Positions 1-18,561 of a stretch of 22,974 nt of DNA are shown here, one piece after another. A model generated the notes under the pieces. It was given only the letters and a program-made list of their open reading frames with translations. It searched no databases and was not told where the DNA came from. The DNA is taken from the IMG/VR virus record IMGVR_UViG_3300049259_000225, positions 1 through 22,974 of that record, one strand, 5' to 3'. Source of the stretch: a virus. Each line of letters starts with the position of its first letter. Position 1 is the stretch's first letter. The position numbers and the translations under genes are program-made.

Positions 1-110
1 GTAACAATCATAGAGATGATGCCTATTAATACAAGAAGGCCGACTAAAGACGCGCAGCCAATCGCGAGCTTACGACTAGTCGGCATGGGGGTGCTTTGAG
101 GGGTATTCAT
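1..110 (-). CDS. Small membrane protein, cut by the left window edge
   Basis: The frame opens with ATG at 110 and runs off the left edge, leaving 36 codons. The visible part is a short polar, Pro/Thr/Ser-rich N-terminus (MNTPQSTPMPTSRK) followed from about residue 15 by a hydrophobic stretch (ASLVGLLVLIGIISMIV) that looks like one transmembrane helix or signal anchor. It starts one base after the stop of the upstream 69-aa gene, so it continues the same minus-strand operon. Two Met codons (residues 1 and 9) are possible starts; I chose the first because it is closest to the upstream stop. Function cannot be told from this fragment. Confidence 0.55.
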   Translation of the reverse strand, partial: MNTPQSTPMPTSRKLAIGCASLVGLLVLIGIISMIV

Positions 111-111
111 T

Positions 112-321
112 TTAGTTCTGGGATTCTCGGTATAACTCAAGTACACGGTCCTGAGATTCAACAACAGACTCGAGCGTTGAAACTAGTTCTGTTGACTTTG
201 CGATCGCTTTCTTCTTCTCTTGGATTTTTTTCCGCGACGCCCAAACAAACCACATCACAAATATTGTCGTGATCAAAGGGAATATCACTGAGCAGATGAA
301 AACGATTTTGACAATGTCCAT
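112..321 (-). CDS. 69-aa single-helix membrane protein with coiled-coil tail
   Basis: Residues 4-28 form one strongly hydrophobic helix with no signal-peptide cleavage site. A Lys/Arg-rich stretch (RKKIQEKKKA) follows, which by the positive-inside rule places the tail in the cytoplasm. The remaining 35 residues have the heptad-like pattern of a short coiled coil. The start at 321 overlaps the end of the upstream 204-aa membrane-protein gene by 37 bp, so the two are probably co-translated. The layout (TM helix then coiled coil) resembles the N-terminus of small Bacteroidota sensor histidine kinases, but no kinase domain follows. Function is unknown; an accessory or regulatory partner of the polytopic membrane protein is the natural guess. 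Confidence 0.6.
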   Translation of the reverse strand: MDIVKIVFICSVIFPLITTIFVMWFVWASRKKIQEKKKAIAKSTELVSTLESVVESQDRVLELYRESQN

Positions 322-899
322 AAGGAAATTGCGAACGCAAGATTAGTTATTGAATTGATCCATGAGTGTATATCAAATAACCTCATCATTAAATTTAAGT
401 CATTTGATTGTAAATAACGGGCCGTGAAGAAAAATATAGTTGAGCTGAAAGCCGAAAACAATAGGATGCCGTTGAAAACGAATATGCTGCTGTCAATGCG
501 TCCATTGATCAGTTTGTAGAACGTGACAAGCGTTATTCCAATCATCAACAGGTTGAGAAGTGTAAAGGAATAACTATTGAATTGAGTTCCTCCGTAAGTA
601 AACCATTCAACAACAGACGTTACCGGCACGATAAGAAATGGAACCCATGCCTCGGATTTTAAGACCTTTGAATACAGTACTCCAATAGTGATTGCAACGA
701 GAGAAGCAAAAAAATAAAAGACAATCATATTGTTGCCGTAGGCTTTGGCTAACGCAATAGAGATTATCTCTGAAAGCAAGTTAAGATAAAAAAATACGAC
801 GATAATTTTGCCGTAGGCAGGCAGCCTGTTAACCATCACGGTACCAAGCAATGTCGGAACTATAATGGTTGCAGAAAGTAATTGCGTGAGGGTGATCAT
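285..899 (-). CDS. Polytopic membrane protein, about 7 helices
   Basis: This 204-aa protein is almost entirely hydrophobic. I count six or seven helices, at roughly residues 6-23, 31-52, 57-77, 84-99, 107-128, 135-158 and 175-195. It contains a FNSYSFTL motif near residue 106. I remember similar FNSYSxTL motifs from Bacteroidota 6-7TM proteins that often sit next to sensor kinases; this is recall, not a search. The frame is open for 10 codons upstream, but the ATG at 899 is preferred because it lies directly after the stop of the 99-aa gene (902-904). The neighbours upstream (Cys-motif protein) and downstream (TM plus coiled coil) suggest a membrane complex or signalling unit. The activity is unknown. 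Confidence 0.75.
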   Translation of the reverse strand: MITLTQLLSATIIVPTLLGTVMVNRLPAYGKIIVVFFYLNLLSEIISIALAKAYGNNMIVFYFFASLVAITIGVLYSKVLKSEAWVPFLIVPVTSVVEWFTYGGTQFNSYSFTLLNLLMIGITLVTFYKLINGRIDSSIFVFNGILLFSAFSSTIFFFTARYLQSNDLNLMMRLFDIHSWINSITNLAFAISLWTLSKSFSSAQ

Positions 900-901
900 C
901 T

Positions 902-1201
902 TTAGTCCATGGGACAGTAAGGCGGACAAGGGTTGCCCACATTTACAGGATCTGTTTCAGATGTCAATAATTTGCCTGTTGAGTCAACAGCATATAGAAC
1001 AACAGTGTTTTCGTTTGCGTCGTTCTTTGCGAATTGAATACTCAACCCTGCTGCATTAGGTGCAGATAAGAGTTGTGTGACGATCGCAGAATCAAAATAA
1101 ATTGAGCGGATGCCGTTAGGGTTTTCCTTTCGATATCGGTCAACCATCTCTTTTCCTTTTTCAGAAGCAATTTTTTGACCTGCTTTTGGATTCCAATTCA
1201 T
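902..1201 (-). CDS. 99-aa protein with C-terminal Cys-Pro-Pro-Tyr-Cys motif
   Basis: A soluble protein with no signal peptide or membrane segment. The N-terminal half contains a charged helix (EKGKEMVDRYRKENPNG) leading to a short strand region (IRSIYFDSAIVTQLLS). The centre predicts as beta-rich (LSIQFAKND, TVVLYAVDSTGK). The C-terminus ends in NVGNPCPPYCPMD, with two Cys separated by Pro-Pro-Tyr. I recall small Bacteroidota proteins of this size with a terminal CPxxC-type motif beside polytopic membrane proteins, but cannot name a domain. Its start overlaps the stop of the upstream 76-aa gene as ATGA, and the membrane-protein gene follows after two bases. The motif could bind metal or form a disulfide. 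Function is unknown. Confidence 0.7.
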   Translation of the reverse strand: MNWNPKAGQKIASEKGKEMVDRYRKENPNGIRSIYFDSAIVTQLLSAPNAAGLSIQFAKNDANENTVVLYAVDSTGKLLTSETDPVNVGNPCPPYCPMD

Positions 1202-1428
1202 GGTTTGTTTTTGGTTATGATTAATGTAAAATATTCTACTTGCGTTAATGTTGCCTTTCTTTCATAGTAATCTGTCTTAGACAAGACTGATTTTTGAAGG
1301 TCGTTGATATTCCGGTCCTCTGCTAACTTCTCTTTCAAGTAGCTGCCCAATGTCAGTGGGTCAATGTTAATCTCTTTTAAGGCCTGGAATATCTTCTCCT
1401 CCAGCGTCTCGTCTTTTATTGAGTTCAT
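1198..1428 (-). CDS. 76-aa soluble protein, first gene of left operon
   Basis: A short, charged, mostly helical protein with no recognisable domain. It has an acidic N-terminus (KDETLEEKIFQALKEI), then a Lys/Asp-rich middle, and ends in a hydrophobic strand-like stretch (YFTLIITKNKP). It is the promoter-proximal gene of the minus-strand operon; 164 bp of apparently non-coding DNA separates it from the repressor gene. Its stop overlaps the start of the Cys-motif gene (ATGA at 1198-1201), so translation of the two is coupled. Function is unknown. Confidence 0.6.
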   Translation of the reverse strand: MNSIKDETLEEKIFQALKEINIDPLTLGSYLKEKLAEDRNINDLQKSVLSKTDYYERKATLTQVEYFTLIITKNKP

Positions 1429-1592
1429 GTATTAAAGCCGTTTAGGTTTGCTGCATGATAAAATTCTTTCCTAAAGAATAATTTAATATGAACTGAAACT
1501 TTTTTGCGATTCATGAGTTTTGATGAAAATTCAAACGATTGACCTTGATCGTCATAGTATTTTTATACTATCAAAATGGTAAAAAAGTACTA
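1429..1592. promoter_or_regulatory. Intergenic stretch with two perfect palindromes
   Basis: This AT-rich gap between the repressor and the left operon has no convincing ORF. It holds two perfect inverted repeats: ATTCTTT-CCT-AAAGAAT at 1463-1479 and ATAGTAT-TTTT-ATACTAT at 1554-1571. Neither has a good T-run on the minus strand, so they read more like protein-binding sites than terminators. A weak hairpin at 1585-1598 (AAGTA/TACTT, read on the minus strand with six T) overlaps the repressor stop and could end its transcript. The left operon's own promoter, if it has one, must be here; I could not pick out a clear -33/-7 pair. Confidence 0.4.
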
Positions 1593-1952
1593 CTACTTCT
1601 TTTGAACACTTTCGACTTTCTTCTGACACTCTTTCAACTGCTTTTTTAGTTCAGCAATCTTCAACTCATCGTATGTGATAATTTTTTCGAGAGCTTCAAT
1701 TGTCTTCCTTAAATCATCCTCGGTTGTCCCTTTTTTAGGCGAGTTTTTTATCGTCTCTGTTCCGAACAGCAAGTTAGGAGTTGTGTCCAGTACAACAAGC
1801 ATTTTATATATTATTTCTAAACTCGGTGAGTTTTCACCATTCTCATAATTGGCGATTTGTCCTCTCGAAACCCCGAGCTTTTCGGCAAGTTGCTGCTGGG
1901 TAAAGCCATTCTTTTCACGTAAGCTTTTGATATTCAATTGAGTGTTCGACAT
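1593..1952 (-). CDS. XRE-family (CI-like) repressor
   Basis: The 119-aa protein has an N-terminal HTH_3/XRE domain at about residues 6-60: LREKNGFTQQQLAEKLGVSR is the first and start of the second helix, followed by GQIANYENGENSPSLE, the classical recognition helix and capping region. Residues 75-119 form a Lys/Glu-rich coiled coil, likely the dimerisation element. There is no peptidase S24 domain, so it is not a self-cleaving CI/LexA-type repressor and induction must work another way. It is divergent from the early operon with 88 bp of control DNA between them, the usual place for a lysogeny repressor. It may also regulate the left operon, which it precedes on the same strand. Confidence 0.9.
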   Translation of the reverse strand: MSNTQLNIKSLREKNGFTQQQLAEKLGVSRGQIANYENGENSPSLEIIYKMLVVLDTTPNLLFGTETIKNSPKKGTTEDDLRKTIEALEKIITYDELKIAELKKQLKECQKKVESVQKK

Positions 1953-3234: not shown

Positions 3235-3870
3235 ATGCAAACTTCATTGGAAAATAAGTCCAATTACGATCTGCGATATATCATCGAATACGTTTCAGAG
3301 TCTCGCGCTGCCGCAGGGGAACAACTGCTCAAGCAGTCTCCGTCCAATGACGATCTGCGATATATCATCGAATACGTTTCAGAGTCTCGCGCTGCCGCAT
3401 GGGAACAACTGCTCAAGCAGTCTCCGTCCAATGACGATCTGCGATATATCATCCGCTACGTTTCAGAGTCTCGCGCTGCCGCATGGGAACAACTGCTCAA
3501 GCAGTCTCCGTCCAATGACGATCTGCGATATATCATCCGCTACGTTTCAGAGTCTCGCGCTGCCGCAGCCAGGTTACTCCGCTCCAATCTTGGCTTTCCA
3601 ATGGAAGTCGATGAAGTGGCACTCATTAAGCAAATAGCCGATATCGTTCTGAAGGATAATAAGAAACTGCGAATGGGAGCATGGCATTGTAAAACTGCTC
3701 ATTGCGTCGCAGGCTGGGCTTGCGTACTCAATCCAGTTGCCGGCGAGATTGAAAAAGCACACAACACAGAAATGGCTGGCTTTGCCACAATACCATCACT
3801 GACAAATTATTTCTACAGTGAAGACAAAGTTGTACTTGAGGTTCTGAAAAAGTTTCAGGAAGCAAATTAA
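3235..3870 (+). CDS. Protein with four tandem 28-aa repeats and a Trp-His-Cys C-terminal domain
   Basis: Residues 10-111 are four tandem units of 28 residues, nearly identical and built as helix (DLRYIIEYV), turn (SES), helix (RAAAWEQLLKQ), SPSN. This is a small alpha-solenoid of the leucine-rich-variant or HEAT type. The fourth unit is incomplete and merges into a different C-terminal domain (about 112-211) with GAWHCKTAHCVAGWAC, a motif I have seen in phage proteins of unknown function; its Cys and His residues could bind a metal. No membrane segment. The DNA repeats mean copy number can change easily. It is probably a protein-binding solenoid fused to a small folded domain; partner and role are unknown. 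Confidence 0.75.
   Translation: MQTSLENKSNYDLRYIIEYVSESRAAAGEQLLKQSPSNDDLRYIIEYVSESRAAAWEQLLKQSPSNDDLRYIIRYVSESRAAAWEQLLKQSPSNDDLRYIIRYVSESRAAAARLLRSNLGFPMEVDEVALIKQIADIVLKDNKKLRMGAWHCKTAHCVAGWACVLNPVAGEIEKAHNTEMAGFATIPSLTNYFYSEDKVVLEVLKKFQEAN
3262..3567 (+). repeat. 84-bp in-frame tandem repeats, 3.6 copies
   Basis: Copies at 3262-3345, 3346-3429, 3430-3513 and the partial 3514-3567. Copies 1 and 2 differ at only two bases (Tyr/Asp at the second codon and Gly/Trp at unit residue 19). Copies 3 and 4 share a GAA-to-CGC change (Glu to Arg at unit residue 9) and otherwise match. Synonymous positions are also conserved, so the expansion is recent or kept homogeneous by gene conversion. Confidence 0.95.
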
Positions 3871-5095: not shown

Positions 5096-5554
5096 ATGCA
5101 ACTTGAACATCAAGTCTGTACGCTCGAACAATCTAAAAAATTAAAGGAGCTGGGACTATTCCAGGATTCAGCACTCTTCTCGTGGTGCGGAAATGAAAGT
5201 CATGCGGCTAACAACAAGCCGTGGGTGTGGATATCTCAAACTATTCCTGTCAACAATCAAATGGAAGAAATGCGTCAGGATATTCCAAGTGCAAAACCTT
5301 TCGCAGCAGCATTCACAGTTGGTGAATTGGGCCGAATGCTCACATTTCCTGACAAGTATTACAAGACATCTCCCATCAAACTTTCTTTTAAAACACCGGC
5401 AGATAAATGGTCGCTTGATCTTAATGTCGAAACTGAAAACGAAGAGGAAATTTTATTTGAACATGAGGCCCATGCCAGAGCCGCATTGCTGATATACTTC
5501 ATAGAGAATGACATTCACACAGCTGAATATTTCAATACACGCCTTTCAGCATGA
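5096..5554 (+). CDS. 152-aa conserved phage protein preceding the methylase genes
   Basis: The start LEHQVCTLEQSKKLKELGLF and a following SALFSWCG segment resemble a hypothetical protein common in Bacteroidota phages and conjugative elements (the 'LEQAKKLKELGVKQxSLFYW' type), recalled rather than searched. Further features are a FTVGELGRMLTFP helix near residues 73-85 and a C-terminal ARAALLIYFIEN helix near 130-141. No catalytic motif or membrane helix. It overlaps the helicase-methylase start as ATGA. It may be regulatory; function is unknown. Confidence 0.65.
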   Translation: MQLEHQVCTLEQSKKLKELGLFQDSALFSWCGNESHAANNKPWVWISQTIPVNNQMEEMRQDIPSAKPFAAAFTVGELGRMLTFPDKYYKTSPIKLSFKTPADKWSLDLNVETENEEEILFEHEAHARAALLIYFIENDIHTAEYFNTRLSA

Positions 5555-8280
5555 CAGCCATTCATCCAGCATACGAAGCGTTTTTAAAGAGCAAGGTTCG
5601 ACTTGCCAACAATGATGGATTTGAGATCGATGATGCGTTGATCAATCCAGCATTGAAGCCACACAACCGGTTAATGGTAAAGTGGCTGATCAAAGGAGGT
5701 CGACGGGCGTGCTTCGCTAGGTTTGGATTACACAAGACTGTTACCCAGCTGGAAACGTTGCGAATAATTCTTGATCAAGTCGGCGGACGTGGACTTATTG
5801 TGTGCCCTTTGAACGTGCGTGTCGAATTCATTAACGACGCACTTAATATTTTGAAATGGAAAGTTCCACCGAAATTCATTCGAACGATCGAAGAAGCGGA
5901 CGAGACTGGAATATATATCACCAATTACGAAACCATCCGCGAGGGAAAACTTGATCCGCGATTATTCACAGTAGCGTCTCTTGATGAAGCTTCTATCCTC
6001 CGCGGATTCGGAGGCTCTAAAACATTTCGTGAATTCATGAGACTGTTCACCGGTGATGGCGGTCCTCTCGGAGATCGTAAAGGAACGCAACGTGTGAATT
6101 ACCGTTTTGTGGCCACGGCAACTCCATCGCCAAATGAATACATCGAACTGCTTGCCTATGCAGATTTCTTAGGCATCATGGATGTTAGCCAGGCAAAAAC
6201 AAGGTTCTTCAAAAGAGATTCAACGCACGCCGACAAACTCAAACTGTACCCACATAAGGAAGAAGAGTTTTGGTTATGGGTTGCGTCCTGGGCTTTGTTT
6301 GTTCAAAAGCCTTCCGATATCACTGGAAATGCAGAGGATGATATCGGCTACGAACTTGAAGAGCTAACGCCAACTTCAAAATGCATTCACTGGCACGAGA
6401 TAAAAACCGATCACTCCACGGCGGGAATGGAGAGGGACGGGCAATATCGGATGCTGAAAGATAACGCAGTAGGACTCGAGGGGTCTGCTCAGGAGAAACG
6501 TGAAAGCCTTCATCCACGCGTGGCAAAAGTTGTGGAGATACGCTCATTGTTTCCGAACGAGAATAAAATCATTTGGCACGATCTGGAAAGTGAGCGAGCT
6601 GCGATCGAGAAAGCGATACCTGGTTCTGTCAGTGTTTTCGGTTCACAGAAGTTAGAGGACCGGGAAGACATTATTGCTCGATTCACATTGGGAGAGATTG
6701 CTGATCTGAACGCAAAACCTTCCATGCTTGGTTCAGGATGTAATCTACAACGCTCATGCGGATGGGGAATATATACAGGCCTTGGTTTTAAGTTCAACGA
6801 GTTCATTCAATCACTCCATAGGATTTATCGATACGGAATGAAGCCAAATCGTTTTGGCGATGATCACATCCGAATAGACCTCATTCATACAACTGCCGAG
6901 AGACACATCGTCAAGCAATTAATTAGAAAGTGGAACCAACACAACGAACTGGTAAAACGCATGACAGAGATTATTAAAAAATATGGGTTGAACCACGTTG
7001 AAATGGCTCAACACTTGACGCGAAAGATGGGCATCGATCGAGTAGAAGTCAAAGGCTCAACATTCACCGCTGTTCAAACAGACAACGTACCAGAGGCTAA
7101 AAAGCTTGAAACAAATAGCATTGGGTTGATCTTGACCAGCTGGCCATTTGCAAATCAGTACGAATACTCGCCCAACTATGCAGACTTCGGACACAGTGAT
7201 AACACTGCAGAGTTTTTCCGACAAATGGATTTTTTAACGCCGGAGTTATTCCGCGCAATGATACCGGGACGCATTTACGCTTTGCATGTTAAAGACAGAA
7301 TTATTCCTGGAGGAATGAACGGGTTCGGCTTTCAAACTACTTACCCGTTCCATCTTGATTGCATCAACCACATGTGCAAACATGGCTTCGGTTATCTCGG
7401 AATGAAAACAATCGTGACCGATGTAGTCCGTGAAAACAATCAAACATACAGGCTCGGATGGACTGAACAGTGTAAGGACGGATCAAAGATGGGGGTCGGT
7501 ATGCCGGAATACCTCCTCCTCTTCAGGAAGCCACAAACTGATCAGTCAAAAGCATACAGTGATGTTCCTGTTATCAAGCTGAAGAAGATCTATAAACGAA
7601 TCGAGGACATTTCTGATCTCGAAGATCGCGCAATGCAACTTCGTGCAGCCGACATGGAGGCGGAAGAAATTTATAAATCTCTTGATTCAAAGGAAAGAGG
7701 TTACTGGAAAAATCCAGGAGGATACTCTCGCGCAAAATGGCAAGTGGACGCGCACGGATTCACTCGCAGCTCTGGCGATCGCTTACTCGCTCCGGAAGAG
7801 TGGTTACACCTTGAGCATGATCAAATCTTTCAACGCTTCAGAGATTGGTCACTGAACAATGTTTACAAGTTTGACTTTCACGTTGCCCTTGGCGAAACAC
7901 TCGAGGCCGCCGGAAAACTCCCTTCCGGATTCATGTTACTTCAGCCGCAAAGCTGGAGCGATGATGTCTGGACCGATATCACGCGAATGCTGACTCTTAA
8001 CGGGTCACAATGGAGTCTCGGAAAAGAAATGCACATATGCCCTTTTCAGTTAGACCTAGTCGGGCGTGTCATCGTGCAAATGAGCAACAGAGGTGACAAG
8101 ATACTTGATCCCTTCGCGGGACTGTTCACTGTTCCTAAGGTTGCTGTAGAGCTTGGCCGGTATGGCATAGGCTACGAATTAAATCCTGTTTCATTTCTCG
8201 ATGGTGTTCATTACTGCAAGACAGCAGAAATCGGAACAAACACCCTTACTCTATTTGACACTTTAAAAGAGGCAGTATGA
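5551..8280 (+). CDS. SNF2-type helicase fused to DNA methyltransferase (N6-adenine/N4-cytosine type)
   Basis: The 909-aa protein has two halves. Residues 1 to about 480 are an SNF2-like superfamily-2 helicase: Walker A-like FGLHKT at 58-63, DEAS at 145-148 (motif II), ATATP at 188-192 (motif III) and HRIYR at 423-427 (motif VI). About 520-909 is an N6/N4 methyltransferase with TSWPF at 529-533 in the place of the catalytic (D/N/S)PP(Y/F), and DPFAG at 853-857 as the SAM-binding motif. The order IV before I makes it circularly permuted, class-beta-like. I know this fusion from phages; it probably modifies phage DNA against host restriction. The residue before the Walker A Lys is His61, where Gly is expected. 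ATGA overlaps join it to both neighbours. Confidence 0.9.
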   Translation: MTAIHPAYEAFLKSKVRLANNDGFEIDDALINPALKPHNRLMVKWLIKGGRRACFARFGLHKTVTQLETLRIILDQVGGRGLIVCPLNVRVEFINDALNILKWKVPPKFIRTIEEADETGIYITNYETIREGKLDPRLFTVASLDEASILRGFGGSKTFREFMRLFTGDGGPLGDRKGTQRVNYRFVATATPSPNEYIELLAYADFLGIMDVSQAKTRFFKRDSTHADKLKLYPHKEEEFWLWVASWALFVQKPSDITGNAEDDIGYELEELTPTSKCIHWHEIKTDHSTAGMERDGQYRMLKDNAVGLEGSAQEKRESLHPRVAKVVEIRSLFPNENKIIWHDLESERAAIEKAIPGSVSVFGSQKLEDREDIIARFTLGEIADLNAKPSMLGSGCNLQRSCGWGIYTGLGFKFNEFIQSLHRIYRYGMKPNRFGDDHIRIDLIHTTAERHIVKQLIRKWNQHNELVKRMTEIIKKYGLNHVEMAQHLTRKMGIDRVEVKGSTFTAVQTDNVPEAKKLETNSIGLILTSWPFANQYEYSPNYADFGHSDNTAEFFRQMDFLTPELFRAMIPGRIYALHVKDRIIPGGMNGFGFQTTYPFHLDCINHMCKHGFGYLGMKTIVTDVVRENNQTYRLGWTEQCKDGSKMGVGMPEYLLLFRKPQTDQSKAYSDVPVIKLKKIYKRIEDISDLEDRAMQLRAADMEAEEIYKSLDSKERGYWKNPGGYSRAKWQVDAHGFTRSSGDRLLAPEEWLHLEHDQIFQRFRDWSLNNVYKFDFHVALGETLEAAGKLPSGFMLLQPQSWSDDVWTDITRMLTLNGSQWSLGKEMHICPFQLDLVGRVIVQMSNRGDKILDPFAGLFTVPKVAVELGRYGIGYELNPVSFLDGVHYCKTAEIGTNTLTLFDTLKEAV

Positions 8281-8510
8281 GCAGATTAAAATCAACTGTA
8301 AAGGTGAATTACTCTTCAGCGATCGGCGGGGCACAGGTTCGCGAAGAAATGAGAAGATCTTATCGATTTGTCTTCAGCAGCAACATACGCGACTGGCAAT
8401 TTACCGACACACAGTTCGGAAGAAACAGAAGGAAGGCATATGAAAACGAATTGCGATCGATAATGAAGCTGGAGAAGCCGGAAACCAACAACGTGAAAAA
8501 AGCAGCATGA
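8277..8510 (+). CDS. 77-aa basic protein between two methyltransferase genes
   Basis: A short basic protein, largely helical (YRFVFSSNIRDWQFTD, GRNRRKAYENELRSIM), with no recognised domain. It is overlapped on both sides by ATGA junctions (8277-8280 and 8507-8510), so it is translated with the helicase-methylase and the C5 methyltransferase. It could be a subunit or specificity cofactor of one of these enzymes, but only location supports that. Confidence 0.6.
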   Translation: MSRLKSTVKVNYSSAIGGAQVREEMRRSYRFVFSSNIRDWQFTDTQFGRNRRKAYENELRSIMKLEKPETNNVKKAA

Positions 8511-10567
8511 AAGTCGAACTACAAAATATTGATTTACTACAGTACATAGTCATCGACTTGTTTTGCGGGGCAGGGGGAACAACAACAGGGTTTGAACTTG
8601 CAGAGTTAACGCTCGATGAGAAACTGGCAGCTGGCTTACCTAAGAATAGTCGGATATCGAAAGTCGTTGCTTGTGTCAACCACGATCCTATAGCAATCAA
8701 ATCTCATTGGGAAAACCATCCAGAGGTTGAACACTTTGAAGAAGATATAACCACCATGTATGGTTCCATCTTCCACTACCGTGATCAGGACAATGCTAAA
8801 AAAGGAATTTGGTTTAAGTCGTCTCAGATCATACGCCTTCAGCGACTCGTCGATTTGTACAAAGCATTTTATCCAGAGGCGAAAATTATTCTTTGGGCTT
8901 CATTAGAGTGCACCAATTTCAGCAAAGCAAAAGGTGGAAAGCCGCGGGACGCTGACAGTAGAACTTTAGCTGATCACCTCCACCCATATATTTTAGCGAT
9001 CGATCCAGACTACATCAAAATTGAAAATGTAGTTGAGTTTATGAGTTGGGGTCCGCTGGATGACAAAGGCAAACCGATCAGCAGAAAGAACGGCCAGGAT
9101 TGGCTCCGTTGGAGAAAGATGGTGTGTGAGCTTGGTTATCGTGACGAGTGGAGAGAATTAAACTCAGCCGATTTCGGAGCGCTCACTTCACGCAACAGAC
9201 TTTTCGGATGTTTCGCGAAGCATGATCTTCCGATCGTCTGGCCGGAACCAACGCACTCTAAGAATCCTGAAAAGACATCGATTTACAATCCTCTTCTAAA
9301 ATGGGAGCCGGTAAAAAAAGCATTGGATTTTTCGGACGAAGGCAATTCAGTTTTCAATCGCAAGAAGGCGCTTTCCACAAAAACGATGCAACGTCTGTTC
9401 ATGGGGTGTGTAAAACATATCGCAGGCGGGAAAGAGAATTACATCAAGGCTCATAACTTCATCAGCAAATATTTTTCAGGAAGACCACAGGATAAGAACA
9501 TTTCAATTGAAGGCCCTGCCGGCGTGATCAAATGCAAGGACAGCCAAGCGTTGGTATTCATAACAAAGTGGAATAGCAATGACAAAATCAACGGTGGTCA
9601 TTCTGGACATTCTGTAAACGAGCCCGCTCCAGTTGTTTCAACTCAAAATAGGCTTGGAGTTGCTTTCATCACTAAAGCGTTCTCTTCCAACTCAAACAAA
9701 AGCGTCAACGCTGGATCTTCAGTAGAAGAATCAGGGCCAACTGTCACAAGTCAGAACAGGCTGGGACTGGCTCAAGCTTGTTTCATTTCTCGATATAACG
9801 GAGTCAACGGAGGAAAGCACGATAACTCACATGGAGTAGAAGGTCCGCTCGGAGCATTGGGTACAGGTGACAACCATGCAAAAGTCACAGCGGATTTCAT
9901 ACAACTGTACTATAGTCAAGGTGGTCAACATACAAGCATAGACGAACCTGCCGGAACAATTCCGACAAAGGATCGAATGGCAAAAGTTCAAGCTGAGTTC
10001 TTCATCGATAAGCAATTCTCCGGTGATGATAATCATCAATCGGTGAACCAGCCAGCAGGATCCATTCTTCCGAACGATAAGCACAATTTAATCAAGGCGG
10101 AAAAATGGTTGATGGATACGAACTACAACAACGTAGGCTCATCACTTGATCAACCATCGCCAGTCATCACTGCAGATAGACACCACCATTATATTATCAA
10201 TCCATCATGGGGTGGAAATTCTGGATCAGTTGATCAGCCGTGTCACGTAGTAATTGCTCGACAGGACAAAGCGCCATTGTATTTAATAACGTGCAAACAA
10301 GGCGCAGTCGCGGTTCCGGTTTATGATGGCGACTGTGAATGGACTGTCAAGTTAAAAGAATTCATGGCCCTTTACGGAATCGCTGATATCAAGATGCGAA
10401 TGCTGAAGGTCCTGGAATTAAAACTCATCCAAGGGTTTCCAGGTGACTACGTCCTCCGCGGTAATCAAACTGATCAAAAGAAATGTATCGGCAACGCTGT
10501 TCACCCTTACGTTCCGAAAAACTGGATAAAAGCTTTCTCTTATAAATCTCTAAAACTAGCTGCATAA
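8507..10567 (+). CDS. C5-cytosine DNA methyltransferase with repeat-rich recognition region
   Basis: The 686-aa enzyme transfers a methyl group from SAM to cytosine C5. Motif I is IDLFCGAGG (residues 16-24). Motif IV holds the catalytic Cys135 in LECTNFS, in place of the usual PCQ-type sequence. Motif VI is ENV at 173-175. Motif VIII is TSRNRLF with Arg229 and Arg231. Motif IX/X is IQGFP around 641-645 and GNAVHP from 662. About 280 residues (318-595) between VIII and IX are eight diverged repeats. It is much longer than a typical 330-450-aa C5 enzyme. It probably methylates phage DNA to evade restriction. Its TAA overlaps the next ATG (TAATG). Confidence 0.92.
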   Translation: MKVELQNIDLLQYIVIDLFCGAGGTTTGFELAELTLDEKLAAGLPKNSRISKVVACVNHDPIAIKSHWENHPEVEHFEEDITTMYGSIFHYRDQDNAKKGIWFKSSQIIRLQRLVDLYKAFYPEAKIILWASLECTNFSKAKGGKPRDADSRTLADHLHPYILAIDPDYIKIENVVEFMSWGPLDDKGKPISRKNGQDWLRWRKMVCELGYRDEWRELNSADFGALTSRNRLFGCFAKHDLPIVWPEPTHSKNPEKTSIYNPLLKWEPVKKALDFSDEGNSVFNRKKALSTKTMQRLFMGCVKHIAGGKENYIKAHNFISKYFSGRPQDKNISIEGPAGVIKCKDSQALVFITKWNSNDKINGGHSGHSVNEPAPVVSTQNRLGVAFITKAFSSNSNKSVNAGSSVEESGPTVTSQNRLGLAQACFISRYNGVNGGKHDNSHGVEGPLGALGTGDNHAKVTADFIQLYYSQGGQHTSIDEPAGTIPTKDRMAKVQAEFFIDKQFSGDDNHQSVNQPAGSILPNDKHNLIKAEKWLMDTNYNNVGSSLDQPSPVITADRHHHYIINPSWGGNSGSVDQPCHVVIARQDKAPLYLITCKQGAVAVPVYDGDCEWTVKLKEFMALYGIADIKMRMLKVLELKLIQGFPGDYVLRGNQTDQKKCIGNAVHPYVPKNWIKAFSYKSLKLAA
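9458..10291 (+). repeat. Eight diverged protein repeats in the C5 methyltransferase
   Basis: Each unit is about 30-40 residues and begins with an aromatic-rich strand (FISKYFSG, FITKWNSN, FITKAFSS, FISRYNGV, FIQLYYSQ, FFIDKQFSG, WLMDTNYN, NPSWGGN). It then has a (S/G)(I/V)(D/N/E)(E/Q)PxxxI core and a (T/S)xxx(R/D/K)-type end (PTKDRMAKV, STQNRLGVA, TADRHHHYI). The DNA is too diverged to be a recent duplication. The block sits where C5 enzymes carry their target-recognition domain. Confidence 0.75.
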
Positions 10568-17588: not shown

Positions 17589-17950
17589 TCTGGTCTGAGT
17601 TTAAATGTTACAGAGTAGTGGCCACTGTTCGGGTAGTAGACACTTAGATAATAGGAGTTAGGCAATGATATCACTAGCCAACCGATAAAATTCCCCTTCA
17701 GCTCGTAATAGGTTTTTCCTTTGAACTTGAAGGTCTTGTTAATATCAAATGTTTGGACGCTGTCACAACGGATATAAATTTTAGTTGGAGTAATAGCGAT
17801 TAGTCCGCGATCGATCGTGTGACAACGCTTGTTCGAACATGCACTTAAAACATGCCGCTGATCATATGCTTGGCAGTGGCCTTTGATCAATCCAATGATA
17901 CAGATCAACAATAATATTATTCCAATCAGTATGGTTGTGAGACGATTCAA
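17576..17950 (-). CDS. 124-aa membrane-anchored protein in the lysis cluster
   Basis: An N-terminal helix (residues 4-22, RLTTILIGIILLLICIIGLI) is a signal anchor or uncleaved signal peptide. The rest is a Cys-containing (C26, C38, C43) beta-rich periplasmic domain (IAITPTKIYIRCD, FKFKGKTYYELKGNF, YYLSVYYPNSGHYS). It overlaps the endolysin stop (ATGA at 17947-17950) and the spanin start by 13 bp. A role in lysis control, such as an anti-holin or a second spanin partner, is possible; nothing specific supports it. Confidence 0.6.
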   Translation of the reverse strand: MNRLTTILIGIILLLICIIGLIKGHCQAYDQRHVLSACSNKRCHTIDRGLIAITPTKIYIRCDSVQTFDINKTFKFKGKTYYELKGNFIGWLVISLPNSYYLSVYYPNSGHYSVTFKLRPECEK

Positions 17951-18561
17951 ATCGGTTTCAGGTGCTCAACATTCTCAATACAATGGACAATACAGTTTGC
18001 AATCTTTGTCTGACCGTCAACGCTCATTAAGAAATCCGCTTCTTTTCTGTTGTCAAAGAATAGGTTTTCAATAAGTAACGATGGACAATCCGTTTTACGG
18101 AGAACATAGTAGTCCGCTTCTTTATCGCTATCACCATCTGCCAAGTCCTTCCGGAATGGAAACGATGGGAAAAATTTCTGATACGTTTCGCAAAAAATAT
18201 TTGCGACCTTATCGGATTTAGTCTGCCCAGGTGACGTGAATATTTCAAATCCTGATCCTCCTCCAGCGTTGGAGTGAATGCTTAGATAAACAGCACGCTT
18301 GTCTTTTGCGAAAATATCGTCGGCCCTTTTTACTCTCAAAGCAAGACTGTCATCGTCGTGCTCGTCATACACGAGTTTAAAATCAATGTTACGCTCCGTC
18401 ATCTGTAGCCAGATCAATCTGGCTATAGCACGGTTGATCACACCTTCGCATACAACAACATCATCCGGAAACTTGCACATCTTCGCAGGAGCTGTGGTGT
18501 ACACTCCATTCTTCATTCCTCCGTGGCCGGCATCGAGGACCCATAAGTAGTTACTTTTCAT
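17947..18561 (-). CDS. N-acetylmuramoyl-L-alanine amidase (Amidase_3), endolysin
   Basis: The 204-aa enzyme cleaves the amide bond between MurNAc and the stem peptide. The zinc ligands are visible: H13 in LDAGHGG, E39 in VCEGVINR and H96 in LSIHSNAG; E165 in LLIENLFF is the catalytic Glu. The whole protein is the catalytic domain; no cell-wall-binding domain and no signal peptide, so it needs a holin to reach the peptidoglycan. Size and motifs match Amidase_3 phage endolysins. Upstream are two small membrane proteins and downstream the spanin candidate. Starts in an ATGA overlap with the 91-aa membrane protein. Confidence 0.93.
   Translation of the reverse strand: MKSNYLWVLDAGHGGMKNGVYTTAPAKMCKFPDDVVVCEGVINRAIARLIWLQMTERNIDFKLVYDEHDDDSLALRVKRADDIFAKDKRAVYLSIHSNAGGGSGFEIFTSPGQTKSDKVANIFCETYQKFFPSFPFRKDLADGDSDKEADYYVLRKTDCPSLLIENLFFDNRKEADFLMSVDGQTKIANCIVHCIENVEHLKPI

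What the first reader, a model, noticed from the sequence alone, without database searches (positions are those of the whole stretch)
1..1428. Five-gene left operon of small unknown proteins around a 7-helix membrane protein
Minus-strand genes of 76, 99, 204, 69 aa and a partial one follow each other with ATGA, 2-bp, 37-bp overlap and 1-bp junctions. The set combines a soluble Cys-motif protein, a polytopic membrane protein, a TM/coiled-coil peptide and another TM peptide. It sits on the repressor side of a temperate phage switch, where cargo genes such as superinfection exclusion, defence or host-signalling modules are found. The 204-aa protein resembles Bacteroidota 6-7TM proteins linked to sensor kinases, and the 69-aa one looks like a kinase N-terminus without a kinase. 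That combination reads like a stripped-down sensor or exclusion system, and I know no name for it.
Basis: partly seen in the sequence, partly recalled or inferred. Interest (0 to 1): 0.7.

Follow-up and report, generated by a model that had tools for sequence, protein, structure and literature searches.

The report
Kinase-less receptor cassette in phages
Several unrelated phages of Bacteroidota-type bacteria carry a four-gene cassette descended from a widespread but unnamed bacterial sensor system, keeping the sensing parts but with only a short membrane peptide where the signalling kinase should be, which suggests they tap into, jam or re-use their host's signalling.

Summary
In detail: window 112-1428 (minus strand) encodes 76-, 99-, 204- and 69-aa proteins with 4-nt overlap, 2-nt gap and 37-nt overlap, plus a cut fifth gene. 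None has a significant Pfam, NCBIfam, PHROG or PADLOC match. The four-gene set recurs in order beside the repressor in three other IMG/VR phages (two integrase phages, one Mu-like), under purifying selection. The 99- and 204-aa proteins are homologous to the first two genes of a common Bacteroidia operon: CPxxC-tailed small protein, 7TM protein, HisKA_3 histidine kinase (often then a NarL-type regulator). In 91 of 100 chromosomal loci the kinase directly follows the 7TM gene, often overlapping its end. In the phages a 62-91-aa TM/coiled-coil peptide sits there instead. The four phages form one clade in both trees (98/90, 100/98). Three share a palindrome, ATAGTA-N6-TACTAT, at the repressor-module junction, absent from all other fetched loci. 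Best explanation: a phage-adapted, kinase-less receptor cassette that interferes with or plugs into host signalling; its target is unknown. A rival, signalling to the phage repressor, has a partial sequence hint in two of four phages.

The parts
1593..1952 (-). HTH_3 repressor-like regulator with C-terminal coiled coil (119 aa), upstream neighbour of the cassette
   Evidence: Pfam HTH_3 6.8e-19; PHROG repressor families. Counterparts with a repressor-like gene in the same place in L002, L003, L115
1554..1571 (.). Palindrome ATAGTA-N6-TACTAT between repressor and cassette; a degenerate second copy (2 mismatches) lies 22 bp away at 1576-1593
   Evidence: Only match in the window, 0 expected; same palindrome at the same junction in L115 and L002, none in the other fetched loci
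1198..1428 (-). 76-aa helical protein, first gene of the cassette; relatives found only in the phages (L003 relation doubtful)
902..1201 (-). 99-aa small domain protein with C-terminal GNPCPPYC tail; homologue of the first gene of the chromosomal sensor operon
   Evidence: HHalign 99.7% to chromosomal family; invariant C-P-x-x-C tail; model pLDDT 80.7, tail about 63
285..899 (-). 204-aa seven-helix membrane protein, receptor-like 7TM topology; homologue of the second gene of the chromosomal sensor operon
   Evidence: HHalign 98.6%; AF2 pLDDT 94.8, seven helices; best PDB match proteorhodopsin, TM 0.63 but E 0.028
112..321 (-). 69-aa single-TM plus cytoplasmic coiled-coil peptide, in the position of the kinase; starts 37 nt inside the 7TM gene
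3..110 (-). Cut fifth gene, N-terminal TM segment; not conserved in the other phages, probably not part of the cassette
   Evidence: neighbours differ in L002, L003, L115

Best explanation
A phage-borne, kinase-less derivative of a widespread, unnamed Bacteroidota sensor operon (CPxxC-tailed protein, 7TM protein, HisKA_3 kinase, often NarL-type regulator). Shown: homology of the first two proteins, conserved order, absence of any kinase between cassette and integrase in L002 and L003, one phage clade, purifying selection. Inferred: the 99-aa protein and the 7TM protein form a receptor unit; the 62-91-aa TM/coiled-coil peptide takes the kinase's place in it; when expressed in the lysogen the unit competes with, or couples into, a resident host 7TM-kinase complex and so dampens or diverts that pathway. 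Which host pathway, and to what end, is not known.
For: Same four genes beside the repressor in four phages. HHalign to chromosomal families 99.7% and 98.6%. The kinase directly follows the 7TM gene in 91 of 100 chromosomal loci, with overlaps mostly 4-40 nt or short gaps; phage 7TM-peptide overlaps are 37, 37, 37 and 28 nt. One phage clade in both trees. Purifying selection. A palindrome at the junction in three phages with unlike repressors suggests the cassette carries its own control site. Tandem soluble-7TM pairs with no kinase in between in some genomes (L226, L229, L230) suggest the pair is a unit with a separable output.
Against: The peptide's sequence match to kinase N-termini is weak (50.9%; L002 peptide no better than shuffles). 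No host was identified, so a resident target operon in the same cell is unproven. The function of the chromosomal operon is unknown. Interference is inferred from anatomy only. Kinase-less chromosomal copies exist, though rare (L147).
Confidence: 0.45

Rival explanations
1. Membrane sensor for the phage's own switch: the receptor unit signals through the peptide's cytoplasmic coil to the coiled-coil tail of the neighbouring repressor, tethering or releasing it and so tuning lysogeny to a cell state.
For: A profile of the four peptide coils, searched against 12,571 ORFs from the loci then held, hits as its only non-self matches below E 0.1 the repressor-like proteins of L003 (5.7e-4) and L002 (0.054). 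L002 pair: 0 of 2000 heptad-preserving shuffles reach the observed score; L003: 35 of 2000. The L002 peptide coil matched nothing in the phage records below E 6. Cassette lies next to the repressor in all four phages.
Against: The repressors of the window and L115 show no such match. Coiled coils match promiscuously. The background held few coiled-coil repressors.
Confidence: 0.17
2. Superinfection exclusion or other anti-phage cargo: lysogen-expressed membrane proteins that block entry of, or react to, competing phages.
For: Position beside the repressor, small membrane proteins, cassette shared by unrelated phages.
Against: No PADLOC match. Chromosomal relatives are two-component operons, not defence genes. 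Exclusion does not explain retention of the CPxxC protein plus kinase-position peptide as a set.
Confidence: 0.15
3. Active coupling in trans: the phage unit is a working receptor that recruits a resident host kinase and feeds it a phage-chosen input, switching a host programme on rather than jamming it.
For: Soluble-7TM pair behaves as a unit, with kinases of differing build next to it, e.g. a longer kinase-family protein in L228.
Against: The peptide in the kinase's place would be expected to exclude, not recruit, the kinase; no direct evidence.
Confidence: 0.13
4. Decaying remnant of a captured host operon without function.
For: The kinase is missing.
Against: Open frames, purifying selection, conserved overlaps and conserved C-terminus of the peptide in four phages.
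Confidence: 0.03

Closest known systems
Phage-borne agr quorum-sensing cassette of Clostridium difficile phage phiCDHM1 (and AgrB/AgrD loci of phages Davies, Emery, Abouo with AgrC-like proteins lacking HATPase_c), PMC3901668
   Same: Temperate-phage cassette taken from a host two-component circuit, keeping sensing or signal parts and lacking the response regulator; in three phages the kinase-like protein lacks the ATPase domain (PMC3901668).
   Different: No AgrB, AgrD or AgrC homology here; different phylum; kinase replaced by a short TM/coiled-coil peptide; a 7TM protein and a CPxxC-tailed protein instead.
Unnamed Bacteroidota operon: CPxxC protein - 7TM - HisKA_3 kinase - NarL-type regulator
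   Same: First two proteins homologous, same order, same kind of overlap between the 7TM gene and the next gene.
   Different: No kinase and no regulator; extra 76-aa gene in front; a distinct phage clade.
Sensory rhodopsin plus transducer (7TM receptor with a separate TM signal-output partner; from general knowledge)
   Same: Possible working analogy: 7TM receptor beside a TM partner with a cytoplasmic coil; best PDB fold match is a proteorhodopsin (TM 0.63, E 0.028).
   Different: Match not significant by E-value; no lysine in the middle of helix 7; no full transducer output domain.

Membership tests
Bacteroidota CPxxC protein-7TM-kinase-regulator operon | Small protein with C-terminal C-P-x-x-C tail | tested here: met
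Bacteroidota CPxxC protein-7TM-kinase-regulator operon | About 210-aa 7TM protein of the family | tested here: met
   HHalign 98.6%; seven predicted helices
Bacteroidota CPxxC protein-7TM-kinase-regulator operon | Next gene starts in or near the end of the 7TM gene and opens with one TM helix | tested here: met
   37/37/37/28 nt overlap in phages; kinases mostly 4-40 nt overlap or short gap
Bacteroidota CPxxC protein-7TM-kinase-regulator operon | HisKA_3 plus HATPase_c catalytic domains in that gene | tested here: not met
   62-91-aa peptides only; no kinase between peptide and integrase in L002 and L003; the window and L115 contigs end at or just after the cassette
Bacteroidota CPxxC protein-7TM-kinase-regulator operon | Adjacent NarL-type response regulator | tested here: not met
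   None next to the cassette in L002 and L003; window and L115 end there
Histidine kinase N-terminus (69-aa peptide) | Sequence homology to the TM and linker of the operon's kinases | tested here: inconclusive
   HHalign 50.9%, E 1.6e-4; L003 peptide 25.3 bits versus best shuffle 17.2, L002 peptide 5.5 bits
Phage agr cassette (phiCDHM1 type) | AgrB domain PF04647 and AgrC HATPase_c PF02518 | tested here: not met
   No such Pfam match in the four proteins; features from PMC3901668
Known anti-phage defence systems | Match to a PADLOC model | tested here: not met
   No match for the four proteins
Superinfection exclusion system | Blocks entry of a second phage | not testable with these tools
   Needs a plating assay
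Microbial rhodopsin | Retinal-binding lysine in the middle of helix 7 | tested here: not met
   Predicted helix 168-203 has its only lysine at 198, near its end
Holin or spanin (69-aa peptide) | Match to a PHROG lysis family | tested here: not met
   Best lysis hits E 0.065 and 0.1; the window's endolysin lies at 17947-18561, far away

The most novel reading that the evidence does not exclude
A membrane receptor that controls a phage repressor directly: the CPxxC protein and 7TM protein sense a cell-surface or cytoplasmic state, and the TM peptide, an ex-kinase stub, passes it on by coiled-coil pairing with the repressor's tail, turning a host two-component system into a one-step lysis-lysogeny sensor.
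Probability: 0.15. Interest if true: 0.9.

Novelty: new variant of a known kind. Interest (0 to 1): 0.62.

Why it matters
It defines an unnamed receptor pair (CPxxC protein plus 7TM protein), with the CPxxC family found in about a quarter of sampled genomes of one Bacteroidota order (103 of 398), and shows that phages carry their own kinase-less lineage of it. That gives a handle on what this common host operon senses, and a testable case of phages re-using two-component receptors without the kinase.

Tried and rejected
Direct IMG/VR scan with the 204-aa protein found nothing; the P0001+L002 alignment scan then found L115. Pattern hit L006 and almost all of the 52 genome pattern hits were chance matches. 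The 17-row alignment A5 could not be used for a scan. No phage or plasmid record in INPHARED or PLSDB matched credibly. Pfam, NCBIfam, PHROG and PADLOC gave only weak chance hits for the four proteins. PqiA, LapA, holin and spanin readings of the 69-aa peptide were rejected as generic TM/coil matches. The small protein has no fold match and neither profile finds a solved relative. Repressor relatives were sought as a background for the coil similarity with little yield. Paper searches found no description of the operon in the library held.

Full report
Check of the observation. The window is a 22,974-bp IMG/VR virus record classed as linear. On its minus strand, 112-1428 holds the four ORFs described, with junctions of 4-nt overlap, 2-nt gap and 37-nt overlap, then a 1-nt gap to a cut fifth ORF. 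Upstream lies a 119-aa HTH_3 regulator. The window also carries a replication initiation protein, a helicase-loader-like protein, an endolysin and a structural-protein-like ORF. No integrase or transposase was recognised in it.

Recurrence. The same four genes in the same order follow a repressor-like gene in three further virus contigs: L002 (then a tyrosine integrase), L003 (then a tyrosine integrase) and L115 (next to a Mu-type transposase; the contig ends just after the cassette). Identity to the window in L115, L002 and L003 is 58, 49 and 22% for the 7TM protein, and 54, 36 and 36% for the 99-aa protein, which keeps G-x-PCPPYC in all four. The 76-aa gene is shared by three phages; the 118-aa ORF at that place in L003 is a doubtful relative. 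In nearly all comparisons third-position differences clearly exceed second-position differences, so the frames are under selection. IMG/VR scans need short exact peptide patterns, so four is a lower bound.

Relation to chromosomal operons. A profile of the 99-aa proteins matches 103 of 398 genomes of one order. Profile-profile comparison with the chromosomal families gives 99.7% for the 99-aa protein and 98.6% for the 7TM protein. In the chromosomes the order is small protein, 7TM protein, HisKA_3/HATPase_c kinase (Pfam checked on one), and in the loci read more widely a NarL-type regulator (L107-L110). Of 100 loci from two searches, 85 show the full triad by profile, and six more show 7TM plus kinase with an upstream protein the profile did not recognise. 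The remaining nine: L158 and L174 are cut at contig ends; L088 shows a second 7TM gene before the fetched piece ends; L162 and L175 hold only the small protein; L118/L147 and L146/L148 are duplicate views of two copies in one genome that lack a kinase. In several genomes the small protein begins with a lipoprotein-like signal or a TM anchor (seen by eye; a strict automatic test caught only three), so its compartment may differ between members. Some genomes carry tandem small-protein/7TM pairs.

What replaces the kinase. At the kinase's position the window, L115, L002 and L003 encode peptides of 69, 91, 62 and 65 aa: a short N-terminus, one TM helix, then a positively charged start of a coiled coil with a conserved end. 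Their start codons lie 37, 37, 37 and 28 nt inside the 7TM gene, as kinase starts do in many chromosomal operons. Sequence similarity to kinase N-termini is suggestive for L003 and the window and absent for L002. Position, overlap and topology carry the argument, not sequence alone.

Phylogeny. In trees of 89 sequences the four phage proteins form one clade: support 98/90 for the 7TM protein and 100/98 for the small protein, with unsettled bootstraps and long branches elsewhere. This fits one kinase-less lineage moving between phages of different integration type rather than four separate captures. The root is not known.

Control site. ATAGTA-N6-TACTAT occurs once in the window (1554-1571), once in L115 and once in L002, each between the repressor-like gene and the cassette. 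A search of all 222 loci then fetched (1.36 Mb with the window) finds only copies of these three sites. L115 has a second, one-mismatch copy 22 bp away and the window a two-mismatch copy at the same spacing. The repressor-like proteins of the other phages are only 19-30% identical to the window's, so the site may belong to the cassette rather than to the immunity system. L003, the most divergent member, lacks it. What binds it is unknown.

Structure. The 204-aa model is confident (pLDDT 94.8, pTM 0.88) with seven helices. Loop charges suggest N-terminus out, C-terminus in. The best solved match is proteorhodopsin at TM-score 0.63 but E 0.028, with many GPCRs behind it: a receptor-like seven-helix topology, not proof of kinship. 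The 99-aa model (pLDDT 80.7) has no fold match; its Cys tail is less confidently modelled.

Mechanism. Most likely (0.45) the cassette is a receptor unit whose peptide occupies the kinase slot and so interferes with or diverts a resident host pathway. A rival with a partial sequence hint is signalling to the phage repressor: a profile of the peptide coils finds, among 12,571 ORFs, the L003 and L002 repressor-like proteins as the only non-self hits below E 0.1, but nothing for the window or L115. Exclusion or defence remains open and untested.

Closest known kind. Phage phiCDHM1 carries agrD, agrB and agrC without a response regulator, and phages Davies, Emery and Abouo carry AgrB with AgrC-like proteins lacking the ATPase domain (PMC3901668). 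The present cassette is the same general kind, a phage-borne partial two-component circuit, but of a different and unnamed family with a dedicated peptide in place of the kinase.

Noticed in passing
window 3235-3870: 211-aa ORF whose first half is four near-identical repeats (DLRYIIEYVSESRAAA.EQLLKQSPS), with the DNA repeats conserved almost exactly.
   Followed up: no
window 5551-10567: 909-aa protein with a C-terminal N6/N4 DNA methylase domain and a 686-aa C5 DNA methylase with a long repetitive insert, side by side.
   Followed up: no
L147 9069-10797 and L148 7720-8779 (both genome G754): Two copies of a kinase-less small-protein/7TM pair beside HTH regulators whose C-termini are alike; in one copy the 7TM gene is cut at 114 aa next to phage-like or mobile-element genes.
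   Followed up: partly
L226, L229, L230: Tandem arrays of CPxxC-protein/7TM pairs without a kinase in between, suggesting the pair is the unit.
   Followed up: no
L101, L102, L096: Proteins with the same small domain beside a response regulator and a 1005-1008-aa protein (L101, L102), and among porphyrin/heme-type genes (L096).
   Followed up: no
L002 3295-3762 and L003 4160-4537: Repressor-like proteins whose coiled-coil tails resemble the coil of the cassette's membrane peptide.
   Followed up: partly
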